Assembly (NCBI GenBank): GCA_015478825.1
Contig: JADMKN010000056.1
Location: 1-36,402, forward strand
Reading direction: 5' to 3'
DNA: 36,402 nt
Origin: Patulibacter sp.
Lineage (GTDB): Bacteria; Actinomycetota; Thermoleophilia; Solirubrobacterales; Solirubrobacteraceae
Under the pieces are notes generated by a model, which saw nothing but the letters and a program-made list of their open reading frames with translations, had not been told where the DNA came from and made no database searches. Position numbers and translations under genes: made by a program. Each line of letters starts with the position of its first letter. Position 1 is the stretch's first letter. Shown here in pieces: positions 3,870-32,891 of this stretch.

Positions 3870-6128
3870 TCAGGCGGCGGACTCGGGGTCCCCCTGCGCG
3901 CGGAACGTCCGCAGGCGCAGCGAGTTGGAGACCACGAAGACGCTGGAGAACGCCATCGCGGCGCCGGCGAACAGCGGGTTGAGGTACCCGAGCATCGCCA
4001 CGGGGATCAGCACCACGTTGTAGGCGAACGCCCAGAACAGGTTGATCTTGATCGTCCGCAGCGTCCGCCGCGAGAGCCGGATCGCGTCCGCGGCGGCCCG
4101 CAGGTCGCCGCTGACGAGCGTCAGGTCCGAGGCCTCGATCGCCACGTCGGTGCCCGTCCCGATCGCCAGCCCGAGGTCGGCCTGCGCCAGCGCCGGCGCG
4201 TCGTTGATGCCGTCGCCGACCATCGCCACGGTGTGGCCCTCCTGCTGCAACCGGGTGACGACCCCGGCCTTCCCGGCCGGCAGCACGTCGGCGATCACCT
4301 CGTCGATCCCCAGCTCGTCGCCGATCGCCCGCGCGGTCTGCGCGTTGTCGCCGGTCAGCAGCACCGTGCGCAACCCCAGCTCCCGGAACCGCCGGATCGC
4401 CTCGGCACTGGTCGGCTTGACCGTGTCGGCGACCACGACGATCGCTCGGGCGCGACCGTCCCACGCGGCCGCGATCGCGGTCCGGCCCCGGCTGCGGGCT
4501 TCGTCGAGCGCGGACTGCAGGTCCGGCGACAGGCTGACGCCCCACTCCTCCAGGAGCTGCGGGCGCCCGACCACGACCGCTGATCCGTCGACGATGCCCT
4601 CGACGCCGAGGCCCTCGCGGTTCTTGAACCCCTCGACCTCCGGCAGACGCCCGTGATCCTCCTGCGCCGCGGCGGCAATCGCCTGGGCGATCGGGTGCTC
4701 GGAGGCGCTCTCGACCGCGCCGACCAGCCGCAGCGCCAGCCCGCGCTCTTCGCCCTCGGCGACGACGACATCGACCACGCTCATCCGCCCCGTCGTCACC
4801 GTGCCGGTCTTGTCGAGCACGATCGTGTCGATCCGCCGGGTCGACTCCAGGACGTCGGGGCCCTTGATCAGGATCCCGATCTGGGCGCCACGACCGGTGC
4901 CGACCAGCAGCGCCATCGGCGTGGCCAGCCCCAGCGCGCACGGGCAGGCGATGATCAGCGTCGCCACGGCCGCGGCGAACGCGAACGTCGTCCCGGAGCC
5001 GTCGCCGATCCAGAATCCGAGCGTCGCGACCGCCAGCACGATCACGATCGGCACGAACACGGCCGAGATCCGGTCGACCAGGCGCTGCACCGGCGCCTTG
5101 CCGGTCTGCGCGTCCTCGACCAACCGGGCGATCTGCGCCAGTGCGGTGTCGGCGCCGATCTTCGTCGCGCGGACGACCAGGCGGCCGCCGGCGTTGACCG
5201 TGGCCCCGACGACCTGGTCGCCGGGGCCCTTCTCGACCGGCACCGATTCACCGGTCAGCAGCGACTGGTCGACCGCCGAGCGGCCGTCCTCGACGAGGCC
5301 GTCGGTGGCGACCCGCTCGCCGGGCCGGACGACGAACCGGTCGCCGACCCGGAGTTCGCCGATCGGGATCCGCGTCTCGTCGCCGTCGTCGTCGAGTCGC
5401 GTGACCTGCTTGGCGCCGACCTCGAGCAGCGCCGTGAGGGCCGCTCCGGCCGTGCGCTTCGACCGGGCCTCGAAGTACCGCCCGGCGAGGATCAGCGTGA
5501 TCACGACGCCCGCGGCCTCCAGGTAGATGTGCGAGGCGGCCGCGCCGCGGTCGAGGACCAGCTCCATCGGCATCTCCATGCCGGGCCCGCCGGCGTCGAG
5601 CAGGAACAGCGCGACGACCGACCACCCCCACGCCGCCAGCGTCCCGACCGAGATCAGGGTGTCCATCGTCGCGGCGCCGTGGCGCAGGTTCTGCCAGGTG
5701 GCGCGGTGGAACGGCCACGCCGCCCACAGCACGACCGGCGTCGCGAGCTGCAGCGCGAGCCACTGCCAGTACTCGAACTGGAGCAACGGGATCATCGAAA
5801 TCAGCAGCAGCGGGATCGACAGGACCGCCGCGCCGGTCAGCCGCAGCCGCAGATCGCGCAGATAGACGTCCTCGCCCCGGGACTCCGGCTCGTCGTCGTC
5901 GCCCGCGGTGGCGGGCAGGCGCGCCGTGTAGCCGGCGGCCTGCACCGCCCCGAGCAGGTCGTCGGGGCTGACCGTCGCCGCGTCGTACTCGACCGCGGCC
6001 TTCTCGGTGGCGTAGTTGACGGTCGCCGTGACCCCGTCGAGCTTGTTCAGCTTCCGCTCGATCCGACCGGCGCACGAGGAGCAGGTCATGCCCTCGACGG
6101 GCAGTTCGATCCGCTCGGCGACGCTCAT
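3870..6128 (-). CDS. copA: Heavy-metal-translocating P1B-type ATPase (copper exporter)
   Basis: 752 aa; N-terminal [22 protein letters not shown] motif in [32 protein letters not shown]. Confidence 0.96.
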
Positions 6129-11472: not shown

Positions 11473-13097
11473 GCGCCGACCCCGGTCGTGACGCTCGCGT
11501 CGTGGAGCGGCGTCCGTCCCCGCAGCAGGTCGGCGGCGCGCTCGGCCACCATCACCGTCGGCGCGTGCGTGTTGCCGCCCGGGATCGTCGGGAAGACCGA
11601 CGCGTCGATCACCCGCAGCCCGTCGATCCCGCGGACCCGCAGCTCGGGGTCGACGACCGCGTTCGGATCGTCGGCCGCCCCCATCCGGCAGGTGCCCACG
11701 GGGTGGTAGATCAGCTCGATCCGGTCGCGCAGGCTCGCCTCGAGCTGCTCGTCGCTCTCGTGCTCGCTCCCGGGCCGCAGCTCACGCTCCACCGTCGCCC
11801 GCAGCGGTCCCGAGGCCGCGACCCGACGCGCCATCCGGATCGCCGCGACCATCGCGTCGACGTCCTCGCGCTCGTGCAGCGTGTTGGTCAGGATCGACGG
11901 GGCGTCGTCGGCGTGCGGCGAGCGCAGGGTGACGCGACCCCGGCTCTTCGGCGTCAGCAGCACCGGGGCGATCGTCATCGCGTGTCCGTCGTAGGTCTCG
12001 GCGCCGTGCTTCTCGTAGAACAGGGCGCCGCAGTGGAACTGGATGTCGGCCGCCGGCAGCTCGGGCCGACTGCGCCAGAACGCGACCGACTCGGCGGCCG
12101 TCGAGGTCAGCGGCCCGCTGCGCCGCAGCAGCCACTCCAGCAGGCGGCGCGGCTTGTCGGCGCCGTAGAGCGTGTCGGTCTCCGACACCGCCCAGAGCAC
12201 CGTCAGCATCGGATGGTCCTGGAGGTTCTGACCGACCGCGGACAGGTCGTGGAGCGGGGTGATGCCGTGCTGCCGCAGCTTCCCCGCGGCGCCGATCCCG
12301 GACAGCATCAAGAGCTGCGGCGAGCCGATCGCCCCGGCGCTGAGCAGGACCTCGCGGTTCGCCCGGATCACGTGCAGCTCGCCCTTGCGGTCGCGGTAGC
12401 GGACCCCGGTCGCGCGGTCGCCGTCGTGCTCGACCCGCTCGACCTGGCCGTGGGTGACGACGCTCAGGTTCGGCCGCTTGCGCACCGGGTGCAGGTAGGC
12501 GTCGGCCGCGCTCCAGCGGCGGCCGTCGCGCTGCAGCACCTGGAACATCCCCGCTCCGTCCTGCCGCGGCCCGTTGTAGTCCGGGTTGCGGTCCACGCCC
12601 GACGCGACGAACCCGTCGACGATCCGGCGGTTGAGCGCGCGCGGCGACTTCGCGTCCTGGACGTGCAGCGGACCGTCGGCGCCGTGGTCATCGGACGCGC
12701 CACGGCTGTTGCTCTCGGCCTTCAGGAAGTACGGCTTGACGTCCGCCCAGCCCCACCCGGTCGCGCCGTCGTCCGCCCAGCCGTCGTAGTCGGACGGACG
12801 GCCGCGGACGTAGAGCATCGCGTTCATCGCGCTCGATCCACCGAGGCACTTGCCCCGCGGGACGTACAGCCGGCGGTCGTGGCAGGCCGGCTCGGGATCG
12901 GTCTCGTAGTTCCAGTCGAGCGGACCGTGGAACAGGTTGGGAAAGGCGAGCGGGATCCGCACGTTGAGCCCGGAGTCCTTGCCGCCGGCCTCGATCAGCA
13001 CCACCGAGGTGCCGGGGTCCTCGGTCAGGCGGTTCGCCAGCACGCAGCCGGCCGAGCCGGCTCCGACGATCACGTAGTCCGCGGCGGAGGGAAGCAT
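11469..13097 (-). CDS. GMC family oxidoreductase (choline dehydrogenase-like)
   Basis: DYVIVGAGSAGCVLANRLTED, PRGKCLGGSSAMNAMLYVRG, LLSAGAIGSPQLLMLSGIG, YHPVGTCRMG. Start MLPSAADYV at 13097 preferred over 13127; 4-nt overlap with the FMO gene. Confidence 0.94.
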   Translation of the reverse strand: MLPSAADYVIVGAGSAGCVLANRLTEDPGTSVVLIEAGGKDSGLNVRIPLAFPNLFHGPLDWNYETDPEPACHDRRLYVPRGKCLGGSSAMNAMLYVRGRPSDYDGWADDGATGWGWADVKPYFLKAESNSRGASDDHGADGPLHVQDAKSPRALNRRIVDGFVASGVDRNPDYNGPRQDGAGMFQVLQRDGRRWSAADAYLHPVRKRPNLSVVTHGQVERVEHDGDRATGVRYRDRKGELHVIRANREVLLSAGAIGSPQLLMLSGIGAAGKLRQHGITPLHDLSAVGQNLQDHPMLTVLWAVSETDTLYGADKPRRLLEWLLRRSGPLTSTAAESVAFWRSRPELPAADIQFHCGALFYEKHGAETYDGHAMTIAPVLLTPKSRGRVTLRSPHADDAPSILTNTLHEREDVDAMVAAIRMARRVAASGPLRATVERELRPGSEHESDEQLEASLRDRIELIYHPVGTCRMGAADDPNAVVDPELRVRGIDGLRVIDASVFPTIPGGNTHAPTVMVAERAADLLRGRTPLHDASVTTGVGA

Positions 13098-26773: not shown

Positions 26774-28519
26774 CTAGTCCGCCAGCGCCTGCTCCTTGAA
26801 CGCGCCCTCCGGGGTGACGCTGACCGGCATCGGCTCGGGCTCGCCGCTGGCGGTCTTGTCGGGAATCGCGATCCGGCCGAGCGGCTCGATGGCCGTCGCC
26901 CCCGGCTTCGGTGGGATCAACGCGATCGCGCGCTCGCTCATCGCGGTGATCGTCAGCGACGGGTTGACCCCGACGTTGGCCGGGATCGCCGCGCCGTCGC
27001 AGACCAGCAGGTTCTCGTAGCCGAACACCCGGTGCTCGGCGTCGATCACGCCGTGGTCGGGATCGGCGCCGATCGGGGCGCCGCCGAGGATGTGGGCCGT
27101 CGACGGCACGTTGAACAGCGCCTCGCTGACCGACGACGCCGGCACCCCGCCGGTCTGTCGCGCCAGCCAGTCGGTGAACGCGTTGGCCGCGGGAATGAAC
27201 GTCGGGTTGGGGTGGTTCGGGTCCTGCTGCGTGTTGAGCTTGACCCGGCCGCCCCGCCGCCGCTTCTTGGCGACCAACTGCATCGAGTTGTCGAGCGTCT
27301 GCATCACCAGCACGATGATCGTGCGCTGCGACCAGTCGCGACTGAACATCAGCTCCCAGACCCACCTCGGATGGCGGACCATCTGGCCGAGCCACTTCAG
27401 CGGCCGCGTGACCTTCGTGCCGTCCCCGGTGAGAACCGTGAACAGGCCCCGCAGCGCGCCGCCGCCGGCGCCGTAGGTGACGGTCTCGATGTGGGTATGC
27501 GGATCGGGATAGATCGACGACGTGATCGCGACCCGCTTCGCCAGCGCCTCCGCCCGGCCCGCGGGCACCGTGACGCCGAGGATCGCCTCGCTGTTGGTCC
27601 GGACGAGGTGCCCGAGCCGCCGCGAGAGCTTCGGCAGATCGCCGTTCAACCGGCAGCGCATCAGCAGCTCGTTGGTGCCGAGCGCGCCGCCGGCGACCAC
27701 CACACCACGGGCGCGGATCGTCCGCGCGTCCCTGCGGCGCCACGACCCGGTGCGCTCGTGGACGACCTCCCAGCCGTCGGCGCCGTCGCGCCCGTTGATC
27801 GGCCGCAGCGACGTGACCTCGCGGCGCGCCTCGATCCGGGCTCCGAGCCGGCGGGCGACGTGCAGGTAGTTCTTCGTCGTGCTGTTCTTGGCGCCCTGCG
27901 GACAGCCGAGCATGCAGCGCCCGAGGTTGCTGCAGCCGGTGCGGTCCGGGCCAACCCCGCCGAAATACGGATCGGCGACGGTCTCCCCCGGGGTGTCGAG
28001 GTAGGTGCCGACCCGGGCCTTGCGGTAGGTGTCGGGGACGCCGATGTGGTCGGCGTAGCGCTTGAGGAGCTGGTCGGCCGGATCGTCGACCGTCACGTCG
28101 GTCACGCCCAGCATCCGCTGGGCGGTCTCGTAGTGCGGCGCCAGCTCGTCCTGCCAGTCGGCGAGGTCGGCCCACTGGCGGTCCTCGAAGAACGCCCGCG
28201 GCGGGACGTAGAGGGTCATCGCGTAGGTCAGGCTGCCGCCGCCCACGCCCGAGCCGCTCATGATCGTGACGTCGCGGAAGAACGTCATCTTGAAGATCCC
28301 GCGCATCCCCAGCCGCGGCGCGTAGAAGTAGCGCCGGACGTCCCACGAGCTCTTCGGCATGTCGCGGTCCTCGAAGTGCTCGCCGCGCTCGAGCACGAGC
28401 ACGCGGTGGCCCTTCTCGGCCAGCCGCAGCGCGCTGACGCTCCCGCCGAAGCCGGATCCGATCACCAGCCAGTCGGTGTCGAACTCCCGATCCTCGCCGG
28501 CTGCCCCGGTCGTGCTCAT
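26774..28519 (-). CDS. GMC/cholesterol oxidase-like FAD-dependent oxidoreductase
   Basis: 581 aa; DWLVIGSGFGGSVSALRLAEKGHRVLVLERG, GSGVGGGSLTYAMTLYVPP, CDGAAIPANVGVNPSLTITAMSERAI. Confidence 0.92.
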   Translation of the reverse strand: MSTTGAAGEDREFDTDWLVIGSGFGGSVSALRLAEKGHRVLVLERGEHFEDRDMPKSSWDVRRYFYAPRLGMRGIFKMTFFRDVTIMSGSGVGGGSLTYAMTLYVPPRAFFEDRQWADLADWQDELAPHYETAQRMLGVTDVTVDDPADQLLKRYADHIGVPDTYRKARVGTYLDTPGETVADPYFGGVGPDRTGCSNLGRCMLGCPQGAKNSTTKNYLHVARRLGARIEARREVTSLRPINGRDGADGWEVVHERTGSWRRRDARTIRARGVVVAGGALGTNELLMRCRLNGDLPKLSRRLGHLVRTNSEAILGVTVPAGRAEALAKRVAITSSIYPDPHTHIETVTYGAGGGALRGLFTVLTGDGTKVTRPLKWLGQMVRHPRWVWELMFSRDWSQRTIIVLVMQTLDNSMQLVAKKRRRGGRVKLNTQQDPNHPNPTFIPAANAFTDWLARQTGGVPASSVSEALFNVPSTAHILGGAPIGADPDHGVIDAEHRVFGYENLLVCDGAAIPANVGVNPSLTITAMSERAIALIPPKPGATAIEPLGRIAIPDKTASGEPEPMPVSVTPEGAFKEQALAD

Positions 28520-28541
28520 GTCGCCCTCCCCGTGAAAATCA

Positions 28542-28555
28542 TGACGCAGGCGTCA
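28542..28555. promoter_or_regulatory. Palindromic operator candidate (copy 1)
   Basis: TGACGC-AG-GCGTCA perfect palindrome 23 nt upstream of the GMC start; near-identical copy at 32853-32866. Confidence 0.75.
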
Positions 28556-28562
28556 CTTTAGA

Positions 28563-28579
28563 GCCTCGGGCCCCGGGGC
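28563..28579 (-). terminator. Weak terminator-like hairpin downstream of the fpg-like gene
   Basis: GCCTCGG-GCC-CCGGGGC with one wobble pair, just after the minus-strand stop at 28588. Confidence 0.35.
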
Positions 28580-28587
28580 GGGCGATT

Positions 28588-29514
28588 TCAGTCGATCAGC
28601 AACCGCGAGAACCGGCGGTCCTTGTACGGCTTGCCGCCGGTCTGGCAGGTCGCGCAGTACGCCATCTCGTCGCTTTCGTAGGAGACGCGGAGGATCTCGT
28701 CGCCGCAGCGCGGGCACGGCTCGCCGACCCGGCGGTGGACCTGGAGCGGCAGCGGCAGCTTGTCGGGCAGCGGCAGCGAGAGCTTCTCCGCGTACTCCGC
28801 CAGCGTGCGGTCCAGCACGACCCGGATCGTCTCGCGCAGGCGGGTGCGCTCGTCGTCGTCGAGATCGCCGCAACGACGCAACGGCGCGAGCTGCGCCTCC
28901 CAGAGGATCTCGTCGACCCAGCTACGACCGATCCCCGCGATCACCCGCTGGTCGCGCAACGCGCCGCGCAGCGTCCGCCGGGGCGGCAGGATCGCCGGGT
29001 CGGGCGGGTCCGGCCACGCTTCCGGTCCGAGCGTCGTCAGCGTCGGGTCCTCGGCCAGCGCGTCGGGCCGCAGCAGTCGCCCCCAGGCGGCGTGCTTCTT
29101 GCCGAACTCGCGCAGTCGCAGCTCGCGCTCGCCGTCGGCGATCCGCACCAGCAGCCGGCTGGAGCGGTCCTTCATCGACGCTCGCGCGTCCCACAGCTGC
29201 AGCCGTCCGGCGCTCATCAGGTGGACCACCAGGGTCGCGTCGGCGACCGCGAGCCGCTCGCCCACGGCGGCGTCCGGATCGACGGCGCGAGCCGCCGCAC
29301 CGGCCGCCGCCAGCCCGCCGCCTGCGAAGCCGACGACGAACAGCTTGCCGCGTCGCCCGATCCCGGTCAGCGTGGCCCCCTCGAGCGCGCTCAGCGGCGG
29401 GTCGAAGGTCTGCATCGTGGCCAGCCCGGGCGCGAACGCGCCCTCGACCCCCGCGCCGCGCAGCGCCCCGTCGAGCAGCCGGGCGGTGATCTCCACTTCC
29501 GGCAGCTCCGGCAC
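28588..29514 (-). CDS. Fpg/Nei family DNA glycosylase
   Basis: 308 aa; MPELPEVEITARLL N-terminus, GRRGKLFVVGF, C-terminal zinc finger CPRCGDEILRVSYESDEMAYCATCQTGG. Confidence 0.94.
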   Translation of the reverse strand: MPELPEVEITARLLDGALRGAGVEGAFAPGLATMQTFDPPLSALEGATLTGIGRRGKLFVVGFAGGGLAAAGAAARAVDPDAAVGERLAVADATLVVHLMSAGRLQLWDARASMKDRSSRLLVRIADGERELRLREFGKKHAAWGRLLRPDALAEDPTLTTLGPEAWPDPPDPAILPPRRTLRGALRDQRVIAGIGRSWVDEILWEAQLAPLRRCGDLDDDERTRLRETIRVVLDRTLAEYAEKLSLPLPDKLPLPLQVHRRVGEPCPRCGDEILRVSYESDEMAYCATCQTGGKPYKDRRFSRLLID

Positions 29515-29527
29515 GGCGTCTGCCCCC

Positions 29528-29980
29528 TCAGCCGATCTCGGCGAGCTCGCGCGGCCCGAGCAGCGCGTCGAGTCGTCCGCCCCCGCCGACCCGCAGCATC
29601 GCGACCGCGCCCTTGCGCATCTTCGTCCGGGCTCCGGTCAGGTCGTGCACCACCTGCGACAGGTCCGGCTCGTGCCCGACGATCAGCACCCGCGGACCGA
29701 GCGTGGCCAGGCCGAGCGCCTCGTCCACATCCAGACCGACCACGGCGGCGTGCTCGACCACCGCTCCGCCCCACGCCGCGACAGCCAGCTCCGCCGTCTG
29801 CCGGGCCCGGACCTTCGGCGAGGCGATCACCACGTCCGGAATGCGGTCGAGCGCGACGAGCGCGCGCCCGGCGATCCGCGCCTCCTCCTCGCCCCGGGCG
29901 ACGAGCTTCCGTGCTCCGTCGTGGTCCCGACTGCCGTGGTCCTCGGCCGTCCCGTGCCGCAGCAGCAGCAACTCAGACAT
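29528..29980 (-). CDS. SixA-like phosphohistidine phosphatase (histidine phosphatase family)
   Basis: 150 aa; LLLRHGTAEDHGSRDHDGARKLVARGEEEA, VLIVGHEPDLSQVVHDLTG. Confidence 0.9.
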   Translation of the reverse strand: MSELLLLRHGTAEDHGSRDHDGARKLVARGEEEARIAGRALVALDRIPDVVIASPKVRARQTAELAVAAWGGAVVEHAAVVGLDVDEALGLATLGPRVLIVGHEPDLSQVVHDLTGARTKMRKGAVAMLRVGGGGRLDALLGPRELAEIG

Positions 29981-30105
29981 CGCGGGCCTCCCGCGGACGC
30001 TTCGTCGTCATGGGCCGGAGTCTACGACGCGGTTTCGCGCGCCACGCACGATCCGGCCCGTTCGGGCGTCACGCGGGCGTCCGGCGGATCCGGTGGAATG
30101 GCGGC

Positions 30106-31227
30106 GTGGACCAAATCGCCCGATACGAGCGCCGTTTCCGCCGCGCGGGGCTGCCGTTGCTGATCGAGGACTGGTCGGCCCGCACCGACGCGTTCAACCG
30201 CGCGTACCCGCTGCTGGCGCTGATCTTCGTCGTCGAGCTGCTCGGCGCGCTCAACCTCGACTGGTCGCCGCTGGCCAACGTCGGGGCGATCGCCGGGGCG
30301 CTGGCCTTCGCGATCGCCGCGGTGGCGCTGAGCAACCGGCTGCGCCGCCGTCCGTGGCTGGCGGTCCCCGAGGATCTCGGTCCGGCGGAGCTCACCGGCT
30401 TCGTGCTGGTGCCTGCCCTGCTGCCGCTGATCTTCAACGGCCAGCTCGTCAGCGCGCTGGTGACCGCCGGGGTCAACCTCGCCGTGCTCGGGGTCGTCGC
30501 GCTCGGCTTCGGCTTCGGGATCGGGTCGATCCTGCTCTGGACGCTGCGGCACCTCGCCGGTCAGCTCGCGGTCTCGCTGATGCTGCTGGCGCGCGCGGTC
30601 CCGCTGCTGCTGCTGTTCGCGCTGGTGCTGTTCGTCAACGCCGAGATGTGGCAGGTCTTCGGCCACATGCGCGACGACTCGATGATCGCCGTGGGGATCC
30701 TCTTGAGCGTGGTGGTGCTCGCGTTCCTCGGCGTGCGGATCCCGCGCGAGGTCCGCACGCTGGAGGCCGGGGTCGCGGCGGACCTGGCGAAGAGCGACGA
30801 CGCCGGAGAGGGCGGGGCGCCGTTCGTGCCGCTACGCCGCGCTCAGCGCGCCAACGTCGGGCTGGTGATGCTGATCAGCCACGGGCTCCAGGTGCTGGTG
30901 GTGACCGCGGCGATCTCCGCGTTCTTCGTCGCGCTCGGGATGCTGATCATCGACCGCGAGACGATGGAGTCGTGGATCGGCACGACCGGCTCCGTGGTCT
31001 GGGTGCCGCCCGACGTCGGCGCCCCGCTGCTGCTGACCGAGGAGCTGCTGCGGGTGGCGCTCGCGATCGGTGGCCTGTCGGGGGTCTACTTCGCGATCAG
31101 CGTGCTGACCGACGCCGCGTACCGCGAGGAGTTCCTCGACGAGCTGACCGAGAACATGGGCCAGACGTTCGCGGCCCGCAGCGAGTACCTCGCGCTGCTG
31201 GCCGCGAAGACCGAAGACCAAAGCTAG
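30106..31227 (+). CDS. Multi-pass integral membrane protein of unknown function
   Basis: From GTG 30106: MDQIARYERRFRRAGLPLLIEDWSARTDAFNRAYPLLALIFVVELLGALNLDWSPLANVG..., multiple hydrophobic segments. Confidence 0.85.
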   Translation: MDQIARYERRFRRAGLPLLIEDWSARTDAFNRAYPLLALIFVVELLGALNLDWSPLANVGAIAGALAFAIAAVALSNRLRRRPWLAVPEDLGPAELTGFVLVPALLPLIFNGQLVSALVTAGVNLAVLGVVALGFGFGIGSILLWTLRHLAGQLAVSLMLLARAVPLLLLFALVLFVNAEMWQVFGHMRDDSMIAVGILLSVVVLAFLGVRIPREVRTLEAGVAADLAKSDDAGEGGAPFVPLRRAQRANVGLVMLISHGLQVLVVTAAISAFFVALGMLIIDRETMESWIGTTGSVVWVPPDVGAPLLLTEELLRVALAIGGLSGVYFAISVLTDAAYREEFLDELTENMGQTFAARSEYLALLAAKTEDQS

Positions 31228-32810
31228 TCCCGCGTCCCGCGCCCGTAGAAGAACCGGGTCACGCCGCGCAGCAGCTTGAAGCCGCGGCCGGTGTACGGGT
31301 AGACCTGCGGCTCCTTCTTGATGTGCCAGCGGGACAGCACGAGCGTCTGGGAGTTCGTGTACTTGCGGATCCCGACCGCGCCGTGGCGGGCTCCGAGGCC
31401 GGAGTCCTTCCAACCGCCCATCGGGGCCTCGATCGCGGCGTAGCCGACCAGCGAGTCGTTGACGTGGACCAGGCCCGCTTCGATCCGGCGCGCGATCTGC
31501 TCGCCCTTCGCCATGTCCTTGGTGAAGACCGAGGCCATCAGGCCGTAGGGGCTGTCGTTCGCCATGCGGATCGCCTCCTCGACGTCGGCGACCTTCATGA
31601 TCGGCAGGGTCGGCCCGAAGGTCTCCTCCGTCATGCAGGTCATCGAGTGGTCGACGCCGGTCATCACCGTCGGCGGGTACCAGTAGCCGGGGCGATCGGG
31701 GTCCGGATCGCCGCCGGCGACGATCTGGGCGCCCTTGGTGCGGGCGTCCTCGACGTGGTCGTTGACGATCCCGAACTGGCTCTCGACGGTCAGGGCCCCG
31801 ACGTCCGTGCTGCCCGGACCGGTCGGCTGGTCGTTGCGCAGCGCGCGCGCCTTCTTGGTGACCTTGGCGACGAACTCGTCGTAGACCGGCGCTTCGACGT
31901 AGACCCGCTCGACCGACACGCAGGTCTGGCCGGTGTTGAACATGCCGTAGAACAGCGCCTGGTTGGCGGCGCGCTCGAGGTCCGCGTCGGCGCAGACGAT
32001 GAACGCGTCCTTGCCGCCGAGCTCGAGCGAGCACGGGATCAGCCGCTCGCCGGCGCGGGCGCCGATGTGGCGTCCGACCTCGGTCGAGCCGGTGAACATG
32101 ATCATGTCGACCTGGTCGATGATCGCGTCGCCGAGCACCGAGCCCTTGCCCGTCAGGACCTGCATGACGCCGTCGGGCATCCCGCAGTCCTTGAGCGCCT
32201 TGGCGAGCAGCAGCGAGGTCAGCGGGGTCTTCTCGGCCGGCTTGAGCAGCACGCTGTTGCCGGCCATCAGGGCGGGGATGCAGTCGCCGAAGCCGTTGGT
32301 GAAGGGATAGTTCCACGGCGCGATCACGCCGACCAGCCCGACGGGCGCGTACCGGGTGATCACCTTCTTGCCCTTGAGCAGCGGCGAGGAGATCTTGATC
32401 TTCTCCTCGGCCAGCAGGTCCTCGGCGTGGTCGGCCCAGTGACCGAACGCGGCGGCGGCGTAGAGCACCTCCGCCATCATCGCGTCCTCCCACGCCTTGC
32501 CGGTCTCCGAGACGATCGTGCGGACCAGCTCGTCGGCGTTGGCGGTCACCCACTTCTGGGCGCGCTTCATCACGCGGGCGCGTCCGGCGAAGCCGAGCGC
32601 CTCCCAGGCCGGCTGCACGGCACGGCCGCGGACGGCGGCGGTCGCGGCGGCCTCGGGACCCAGGTCGTCGACCCAGGCGATCGTCTGGCCCGTCGCCGGA
32701 TCGACGACGCCCTTCTGGCCGGCGTGCGGGTCGTCGGCGACCGCGGTCGCGCCGCCCGTCGCGTCGACGTCGTCGGACGGGTGGGCGGAAACCGGTTCCT
32801 GCGCGCTCAT
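31224..32810 (-). CDS. Aldehyde dehydrogenase (succinic semialdehyde dehydrogenase-like)
   Basis: 528 aa; IAPWNYPFTNGFGDCIPALMAGNSVLLKPAEKTPL, FTGSTEVGRHIGARA, SLELGGKDAFIV, MFNTGQTCVSVERVYVEA, EETFGPTLPI. Confidence 0.94.
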   Translation of the reverse strand: MSAQEPVSAHPSDDVDATGGATAVADDPHAGQKGVVDPATGQTIAWVDDLGPEAAATAAVRGRAVQPAWEALGFAGRARVMKRAQKWVTANADELVRTIVSETGKAWEDAMMAEVLYAAAAFGHWADHAEDLLAEEKIKISSPLLKGKKVITRYAPVGLVGVIAPWNYPFTNGFGDCIPALMAGNSVLLKPAEKTPLTSLLLAKALKDCGMPDGVMQVLTGKGSVLGDAIIDQVDMIMFTGSTEVGRHIGARAGERLIPCSLELGGKDAFIVCADADLERAANQALFYGMFNTGQTCVSVERVYVEAPVYDEFVAKVTKKARALRNDQPTGPGSTDVGALTVESQFGIVNDHVEDARTKGAQIVAGGDPDPDRPGYWYPPTVMTGVDHSMTCMTEETFGPTLPIMKVADVEEAIRMANDSPYGLMASVFTKDMAKGEQIARRIEAGLVHVNDSLVGYAAIEAPMGGWKDSGLGARHGAVGIRKYTNSQTLVLSRWHIKKEPQVYPYTGRGFKLLRGVTRFFYGRGTRD

Positions 32811-32838
32811 GCTCAGAGCCTAGCGCTTCAGGAACGAC

Positions 32839-32849
32839 TTGTCCGACAA
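32839..32849. promoter_or_regulatory. Second palindrome in the ALDH promoter
   Basis: TTGTC-C-GACAA, adjacent to TGACACAGGCGTCA. Confidence 0.35.
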
Positions 32850-32852
32850 ACA

Positions 32853-32866
32853 TGACACAGGCGTCA
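32853..32866. promoter_or_regulatory. Palindromic operator candidate (copy 2)
   Basis: TGACACAGGCGTCA, same as copy 1 except one base; flanks CA...CG(T)T also shared; 43 nt upstream of the ALDH start. Confidence 0.75.
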
Positions 32867-32891
32867 CGTTTGCCGGGAAACCGACCCGGCC

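What the first reader, a model, noticed from the sequence alone, without database searches (positions are those of the whole stretch)
28541..32868. Near-identical palindromic operator upstream of the GMC oxidoreductase and the aldehyde dehydrogenase 4.3 kb apart
Read on the coding (minus) strand, GTGACGCCTGCGTCATG precedes the GMC gene and GTGACGCCTGTGTCATG precedes the ALDH gene (16/17 identical), each followed by a T-rich run (ATTTT / TTTGT). The first is a perfect TGACGC-NN-GCGTCA palindrome. I did not find another copy in the window. A GMC alcohol oxidoreductase plus an ALDH could oxidise an alcohol to an acid, so a shared regulator would make biological sense. No regulator gene lies beside either site, so it would act in trans.
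Basis: partly seen in the sequence, partly recalled or inferred. Interest (0 to 1): 0.65.

Follow-up and report, generated by a model that had tools for sequence, protein, structure and literature searches.

The report
Operator of a TetR-family oxidation regulon
Two matching DNA palindromes in front of an alcohol-oxidising and an aldehyde-oxidising enzyme gene are real switch sites: the genome holds only one more such site, in front of a third oxidising enzyme, and the same site goes together with one particular repressor gene in distant bacteria that use it on alkane-oxidising genes.

Summary
The sites lie 22 nt upstream of the GMC oxidoreductase ATG and 42 nt upstream of the ALDH ATG. A weight matrix built without the window's sites scores them 30.9 and 30.1, against 3.5 for the next best place. 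The whole genome has one more site, upstream of a short-chain dehydrogenase, so the regulon is three oxidoreductases. All three other sampled species of the genus carry the site at both genes. Across 61 family genomes the sites sit before FMO, GMC, SDR, ALDH, penicillin-amidase-like and TetR genes. The regulator is very probably one TetR protein encoded beside gltBD, often in an FMO-tetR operon headed by the operator; in this genome it lies on another contig (C189:3263-3928) without FMO or operator. Site and TetR co-occur in the family (29 of 32 site genomes, 6 of 29 siteless ones), again in Caulobacteraceae, where sites precede CYP153 alkane hydroxylases, and in Leptospiraceae/Spirochaetaceae-labelled MAGs. 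Repression and a fatty-acyl or alkanol-type ligand are inferred, not shown.

The parts
28536..28561 (-). Operator 1 (26 bp; core TGACGC-NN-GCGTCA 28542-28555), 22 nt upstream of the GMC start codon
   Evidence: matrix score 30.9, next best in window 3.5; conserved upstream of the GMC orthologues in three other species of the genus
26774..28519 (-). Target 1: GMC oxidoreductase, 581 aa, cholesterol-oxidase-like
   Evidence: Pfam GMC_oxred_N/C; nearest NCBIfam model CholsOxChoxAB 586.6 bits, below its 850 cut-off; PDB cholesterol oxidases
32847..32872 (-). Operator 2 (26 bp palindrome; core 32853-32866), 42 nt upstream of the ALDH start codon
   Evidence: matrix score 30.1; conserved upstream of ALDH orthologues in G052, G019, G037
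31224..32810 (-). Target 2: aldehyde dehydrogenase, 528 aa, passes the succinic semialdehyde dehydrogenase model NF006916
   Evidence: Pfam Aldedh 4.4e-144; NF006916 523.5 bits against cut-off 521

Best explanation
Both sites are operators of one TetR-family dimeric repressor. It binds the palindrome AARGTGACGCNNGCGTCACYTT (consensus) just upstream of the start codons and blocks transcription until a hydrophobic substrate or its acyl derivative binds the repressor. Release then co-induces the alcohol oxidase (GMC), the aldehyde dehydrogenase and, from a third site at C90, a short-chain dehydrogenase, so that an alcohol is carried to the acid. The repressor here is most probably the TetR protein encoded at C189:3263-3928 beside gltBD; it acts in trans and is not autoregulated in this genus, which has no FMO gene or operator at that locus. 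Shown: sites, genome-wide rarity, conservation, co-occurrence with the TetR, synteny, conserved DNA-binding helix. Inferred: binding, repression rather than activation, ligand, and the chemical substrate.
For: Sites are non-random and out-of-sample high scoring; only three full-length sites in 3.37 Mb, control 0, the third upstream of an SDR whose homologues carry the same site in seven other family genomes. Orthologous promoters keep it. In 61 family genomes the motif is found far above the backwards control. 66 of 70 unique sites have a recognised oxidative, hydrolytic or TetR gene starting within 300 bp. TetR: one strong homologue per genome, or none, with a clear gap to the next hit; site against TetR presence 29/3/6/23, Fisher p = 2e-8. 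FMO-tetR operons and stand-alone tetR genes carry the operator themselves. Independent repeat in Caulobacteraceae, core-intact sites: 12/1/5/22, p = 1.2e-5. All 12 other site-bearing genomes tested, from several classes, have one strong TetR homologue. 18 of the 20 invariant TetR residues lie in the DNA-binding region, residues 22-68. Synteny gltB-gltD-tetR-FCRHxR links the own-genus TetR to the others. In G036 the tetR HTH is broken by out-of-frame deletions and no operator was found.
Against: No binding or expression data. The own-genus TetR is only about 44% identical to the query TetR and its locus carries no operator, so autoregulation, the usual proof, is missing here. Genomes are related, so Fisher p-values overstate the evidence. 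With every match up to 3 mismatches counted, the Caulobacteraceae table is weaker (12/5/5/18, p = 0.003). Several GMC genes in TetR-bearing genomes lack the site (4 of 18), and most ALDH orthologues outside the genus lack it (5 of 25 have it). Promoter -35/-10 elements were not mapped.
Confidence: 0.8

Rival explanations
1. Same operator and same regulon, but in this genus a different regulator reads it; the C189 TetR is a diverged protein with another job.
For: The own-genus TetR is 42-44% identical to the query and lacks the operator and FMO at its locus. The genome has about 30 TetR-like matches.
Against: Its synteny (gltB-gltD-tetR-FCRHxR) matches the operator-bearing loci, its recognition region (TVRDIVRRT.LASGTFYNY) is that of the others, and no other TetR in the genome comes close (8.8e-42 against 5.6e-10).
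Confidence: 0.12
2. The protein works as an activator or dual regulator at this palindrome, not a repressor.
For: Some TetR proteins activate; promoter elements were not located, so steric block is not demonstrated.
Against: Sites lie mostly within about 20-60 nt of the start codon, downstream of where activators usually bind; operator-headed FMO-tetR operons fit the usual repressor design.
Confidence: 0.1
3. Chance palindrome or recent duplication of a promoter segment, without regulatory meaning.
For: Two copies only 4.3 kb apart in the window.
Against: Flanks outside the 26 bp are unrelated, orthologous promoters keep the site while the surroundings diverge, a third copy is on another contig, and the same sequence recurs in other classes of bacteria together with the same TetR.
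Confidence: 0.01
4. The element acts in the mRNA 5' leader as a hairpin rather than as a DNA operator.
For: It is close to the start codon and self-complementary.
Against: The two-base spacer is too short for a normal hairpin loop; the element also lies between divergent genes and serves both; the sequence itself is conserved, not just pairing; its presence tracks a DNA-binding protein.
Confidence: 0.02

Closest known systems
AlkX / AlkU (TetR repressors of alkB operons in Dietzia and Rhodococcus)
   Same: TetR repressor controlling first steps of aliphatic oxidation; AlkX reported to respond to C10-C24 fatty acids and to be autoregulated (review PMC8784404)
   Different: The proposed AlkU operator repeats are GATTTacAAATC and ACAAATcTtcAtATTTGT (PMC6921075), unlike TGACGCNNGCGTCA; the targets here are GMC, ALDH, SDR, FMO and CYP153, not alkB. 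AlkX/AlkU protein sequences were not compared here.
CypR (AraC/XylS activator of CYP153 in Alcanivorax and Dietzia)
   Same: Controls CYP153 alkane hydroxylase genes (PMC8784404)
   Different: AraC-type activator; the Caulobacterales CYP153 genes seen here carry a TetR-linked palindrome instead
FadR of Thermus and Bacillus (acyl-CoA-responsive TetR repressors)
   Same: Best fold matches of the predicted C189 TetR structure (TM by query 0.55-0.69); lipid metabolism regulon
   Different: About 21-23% identity; below the NCBIfam FadR cut-off (33.1 against 200); oxidation of alcohols and aldehydes rather than beta-oxidation genes
EthR / EthR2 (mycobacterial TetR repressors of BVMO genes)
   Same: TetR repressor next to a flavin monooxygenase; EthR2 among fold matches
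   Different: About 23% identity; here one dispersed regulon with a different operator (EthR operator from memory, not tested)

Membership tests
TetR family of transcription regulators (proposed regulator) | N-terminal TetR_N HTH domain | tested here: met
   Three operator-headed family members hit PF00440 above cut-off (53-65 bits against 24); C189 TetR aligns with them across the HTH and folds as an all-helical TetR
TetR family of transcription regulators (proposed regulator) | Binding to a palindromic operator near its own or target promoters | tested here: inconclusive
   Operator heads FMO-tetR operons or tetR in most family genomes, but not in the own genus; no binding assay possible
MftR (mycofactocin TetR regulator) | NCBIfam TIGR03968 equivalog score | tested here: not met
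   38.4 bits against 224.9
KstR (cholesterol catabolism repressor) | NCBIfam NF033703 equivalog score | tested here: not met
   20.9 bits against 280, although the GMC target is cholesterol-oxidase-like
FadR (Bacillus-type TetR) | NCBIfam NF053878 equivalog score | tested here: not met
   33.1 bits against 200
AlkX/AlkU alkane repressors | Operator sequence of the alkB promoter type | tested here: not met
   Published proposed repeats (PMC6921075) share nothing with TGACGCNNGCGTCA
AlkX/AlkU alkane repressors | De-repression by fatty acids or derivatives | not testable with these tools
   needs ligand-binding assay
Cholesterol oxidase (GMC target) | NCBIfam NF058674 equivalog score | tested here: not met
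   586.6 against cut-off 850: related, not filed as one
Succinic semialdehyde dehydrogenase GabD2-type (ALDH target) | NCBIfam NF006916 equivalog score | tested here: met
   523.5 against 521, a marginal pass; substrate untested

The most novel reading that the evidence does not exclude
A previously undescribed TetR family with one operator (AARGTGACGCNNGCGTCACYTT) is kept across Solirubrobacteraceae, Caulobacterales and relatives, and Leptospiraceae/Spirochaetaceae MAGs. It is a general switch for oxygenation and alcohol/aldehyde oxidation of hydrophobic substrates, including the CYP153 alkane hydroxylases of Caulobacterales, whose regulator has not been reported in the literature searched.
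Probability: 0.6. Interest if true: 0.6.

Novelty: new member of a known kind. Interest (0 to 1): 0.5.

Why it matters
It assigns a regulator, operator and regulon to genes that had none, from two promoters read by eye, and gives a directly testable prediction (C189 TetR binds three named promoters). If the Caulobacterales part holds, it names a TetR switch for CYP153 alkane hydroxylases, for which the 2022 review read here lists AraC-type regulators as the characterised ones (PMC8784404), and offers a conserved operator/repressor pair for hydrocarbon or fatty-alcohol biosensors.

Tried and rejected
Exact-core scan as a measure of the regulon: it missed the true third site (C90, one core mismatch) and included a false one inside rpsI; the full-length pattern and matrix corrected both. 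Rejected: chance palindrome, promoter duplication, RNA hairpin (see rivals). Rejected as family names for the regulator: MftR, KstR, FadR, by curated cut-offs. Mapping -35/-10 boxes by eye gave no convincing promoter. Literature searches with motif strings found nothing; searches on CYP153 with TetR gave no report of this pair. The exact GTDB-wide pattern scan also hit AT-richer Clostridia, Lactococcus, Shewanella and cyanobacterial genomes; these lack an evident matching gene context and were set aside as probable chance.
Full report
OBSERVATION. They lie 22 nt upstream of the GMC start codon (28519) and 42 nt upstream of the ALDH start codon (32810). Within one mismatch the core occurs once more in the window, at 11489, without the flanks.

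THE ELEMENT IS LONGER THAN THE CORE. In orthologous promoters from the same family the core is flanked by AARG on one side and CYTT on the other, for example GAAGGTGACGCATGCGTCACCTTC. A weight matrix from 54 family sites, none of them the window's own (the window's sites fail the selection), scores the two window sites 30.9 and 30.1; the next best place in the window scores 3.5. In 300 simulated windows (10.9 Mb, first-order Markov) the highest score was 23.2.

THE WHOLE GENOME. The exact core occurs three times, control zero, but one copy is inside rpsI and scores 5.7. With the full-length pattern the genome (3.37 Mb, 297 contigs) has exactly three sites, control zero: the two in the window and C90:25108-25129. 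The C90 site, 31.5 by the matrix, is about 125 bp upstream of a short-chain dehydrogenase gene. SDR genes of the same family carry the same operator in G045, G002, G027, G003, G029, G044 and G052. The regulon in this genome is therefore three oxidoreductases: GMC, ALDH, SDR.

CONSERVATION. The three other species of the genus that were sampled (G052, G037, G019) carry the site upstream of both GMC and ALDH orthologues. In the alignments the operator is a conserved block while the surrounding leader diverges. In the family, 14 of 18 GMC loci from genomes with the TetR have the site, against 2 of 12 from genomes without it; these two (G032, G051) are fragmented assemblies. For the ALDH the site is mostly a feature of this genus (5 of 25).

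FAMILY-WIDE REGULON. A scan of 61 genomes with the 22-bp palindrome, up to 3 mismatches, finds sites far above the backwards control. Of 70 unique sites scoring at least 20, 66 have a gene of a few families starting within 300 bp. Counts, some sites serving two divergent genes: FMO 27, cholesterol-oxidase-like GMC 17, penicillin-amidase-like 13, SDR 8, ALDH 5, TetR 4, peptidase C26 3, FAO-like GMC 2, and one each of P450, acyl-CoA ligase, BVMO and patatin (domain identities for several of them). The GMC, ALDH, FMO and TetR counts are inflated because some loci were fetched through those genes; the unbiased pattern hits show the same families.

THE REGULATOR. Three of the genes directly behind the operator were TetR genes. 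Searching with one of them gives, in 35 of 61 genomes, a single strong homologue and then a steep drop. In most of these genomes it is the second gene of an FMO-tetR operon headed by the operator, beside gltBD and a conserved FCRHxR-type gene. Site and TetR co-occur: 29 genomes with both, 3 with site only, 6 with TetR only, 23 with neither (Fisher p = 2e-8, not corrected for relatedness). Of the six "TetR only", five do have matrix-detectable sites when looked at closely, including this genome. The sixth, G036, has a tetR whose HTH coding region is broken by out-of-frame deletions. In the own genus the orthologue is at C189:3263-3928 (L157), at the same gltB-gltD-tetR-FCRHxR place, without FMO and without operator. 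It is 44% identical to the query, but the DNA-contact region is the same; 18 of 20 residues invariant across 18 TetR proteins from three groups of bacteria lie between residues 22 and 68. Its predicted structure (pLDDT 86) is a TetR fold nearest to FadR, PfmR, EthR2 and KstR2.

BEYOND THE FAMILY. In a sample of the class the operator pattern is confined to this family. An exact pattern scan of all species genomes found it again in Phenylobacterium, Caulobacter, Hyphomonas, Parvibaculum and in Spirochaetaceae/Leptospiraceae-labelled MAGs. In the latter the operator lies between divergent tetR and FMO genes homologous to those of the family. In Caulobacterales it precedes CYP153 P450s (one matches CYP153A7 at 9e-162), their ferredoxin reductase, GMC dehydrogenases, AurF-like diiron proteins, and what look like a TonB-type receptor and a thiolase (the last two named from sequence by eye). 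All 12 site-bearing genomes examined have one strong homologue of the TetR. In 40 Caulobacteraceae genomes the TetR is again bimodal, and core-intact sites follow it (12/1/5/22, p = 1.2e-5; with every match up to 3 mismatches 12/5/5/18, p = 0.003). The core-intact criterion was set after seeing the list.

MECHANISM. Shown: sites, rarity, conservation, association with one TetR family, conserved DNA-contact region. Inferred: the dimer binds the palindrome, blocks transcription close to the start of the transcript, and is released by a ligand. The targets (monooxygenases, alcohol oxidases, ALDH, SDR, acyl-CoA ligase, CYP153) and the FadR-like fold suggest a long-chain alkane, alkanol or acyl derivative as ligand, but a sterol-like or other hydrophobic substrate is not excluded, since the GMC is cholesterol-oxidase-like (586.6 bits, below cut-off 850) and the ALDH is filed as succinic semialdehyde dehydrogenase.

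KNOWN OR NEW. TetR repressors of alkB (AlkX, AlkU) and AraC activators of CYP153 (CypR) are known (PMC8784404, PMC6921075); the AlkU repeats differ from this operator. No paper in the searched library prints this motif, and none found there describes this TetR/CYP153 pair; subscription papers are not covered. The kind of system, a TetR operon switch, is ordinary; the family, operator and regulon appear undescribed. The organism is a member of the Solirubrobacteraceae (inferred from named relatives), probably close to Patulibacter (a Patulibacter MAG has 79% identity over the first 145 aa of the GMC protein).

Noticed in passing
L161 (G036:C5) 4442-5013: The tetR gene of G036 has out-of-frame deletions in the HTH coding region while the rest is 86% identical to its relative in G018; no operator was found in that genome, suggesting joint decay.
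   Followed up: partly
L182 3300-3383 and L183 6475-6558: Svornostia-type genomes have three operators in tandem (spacings of about 27 and 35 bp) between the FMO-tetR operon and the divergent penicillin-amidase-like gene.
   Followed up: no
L163, L165, L166, L175, L182, L183, L187: A penicillin-amidase-like (PF01804) secreted-looking protein of about 820 aa is often transcribed from the same operator, divergent to FMO or tetR; an N-acyl amidase would fit release of acyl chains or homoserine-lactone-type signals, but this is untested.
   Followed up: partly
L289, L292, L295, L297, L300, L302: In Caulobacteraceae the operator repeatedly precedes AurF-like diiron proteins of about 370-390 aa whose role in an alkane-type regulon is unclear.
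   Followed up: no
L118 about 3008 (G019:C1:2647207): A high-scoring operator (32.9) in a same-genus species lies upstream of a 234-aa predicted membrane protein of unknown function.
   Followed up: no
L157 3939-5030 and homologues L163_1, L168_5, L179_6: A conserved FCRHxR...CxxC protein of unknown function sits downstream of tetR beside gltBD across the family, with or without the FMO gene.
   Followed up: no
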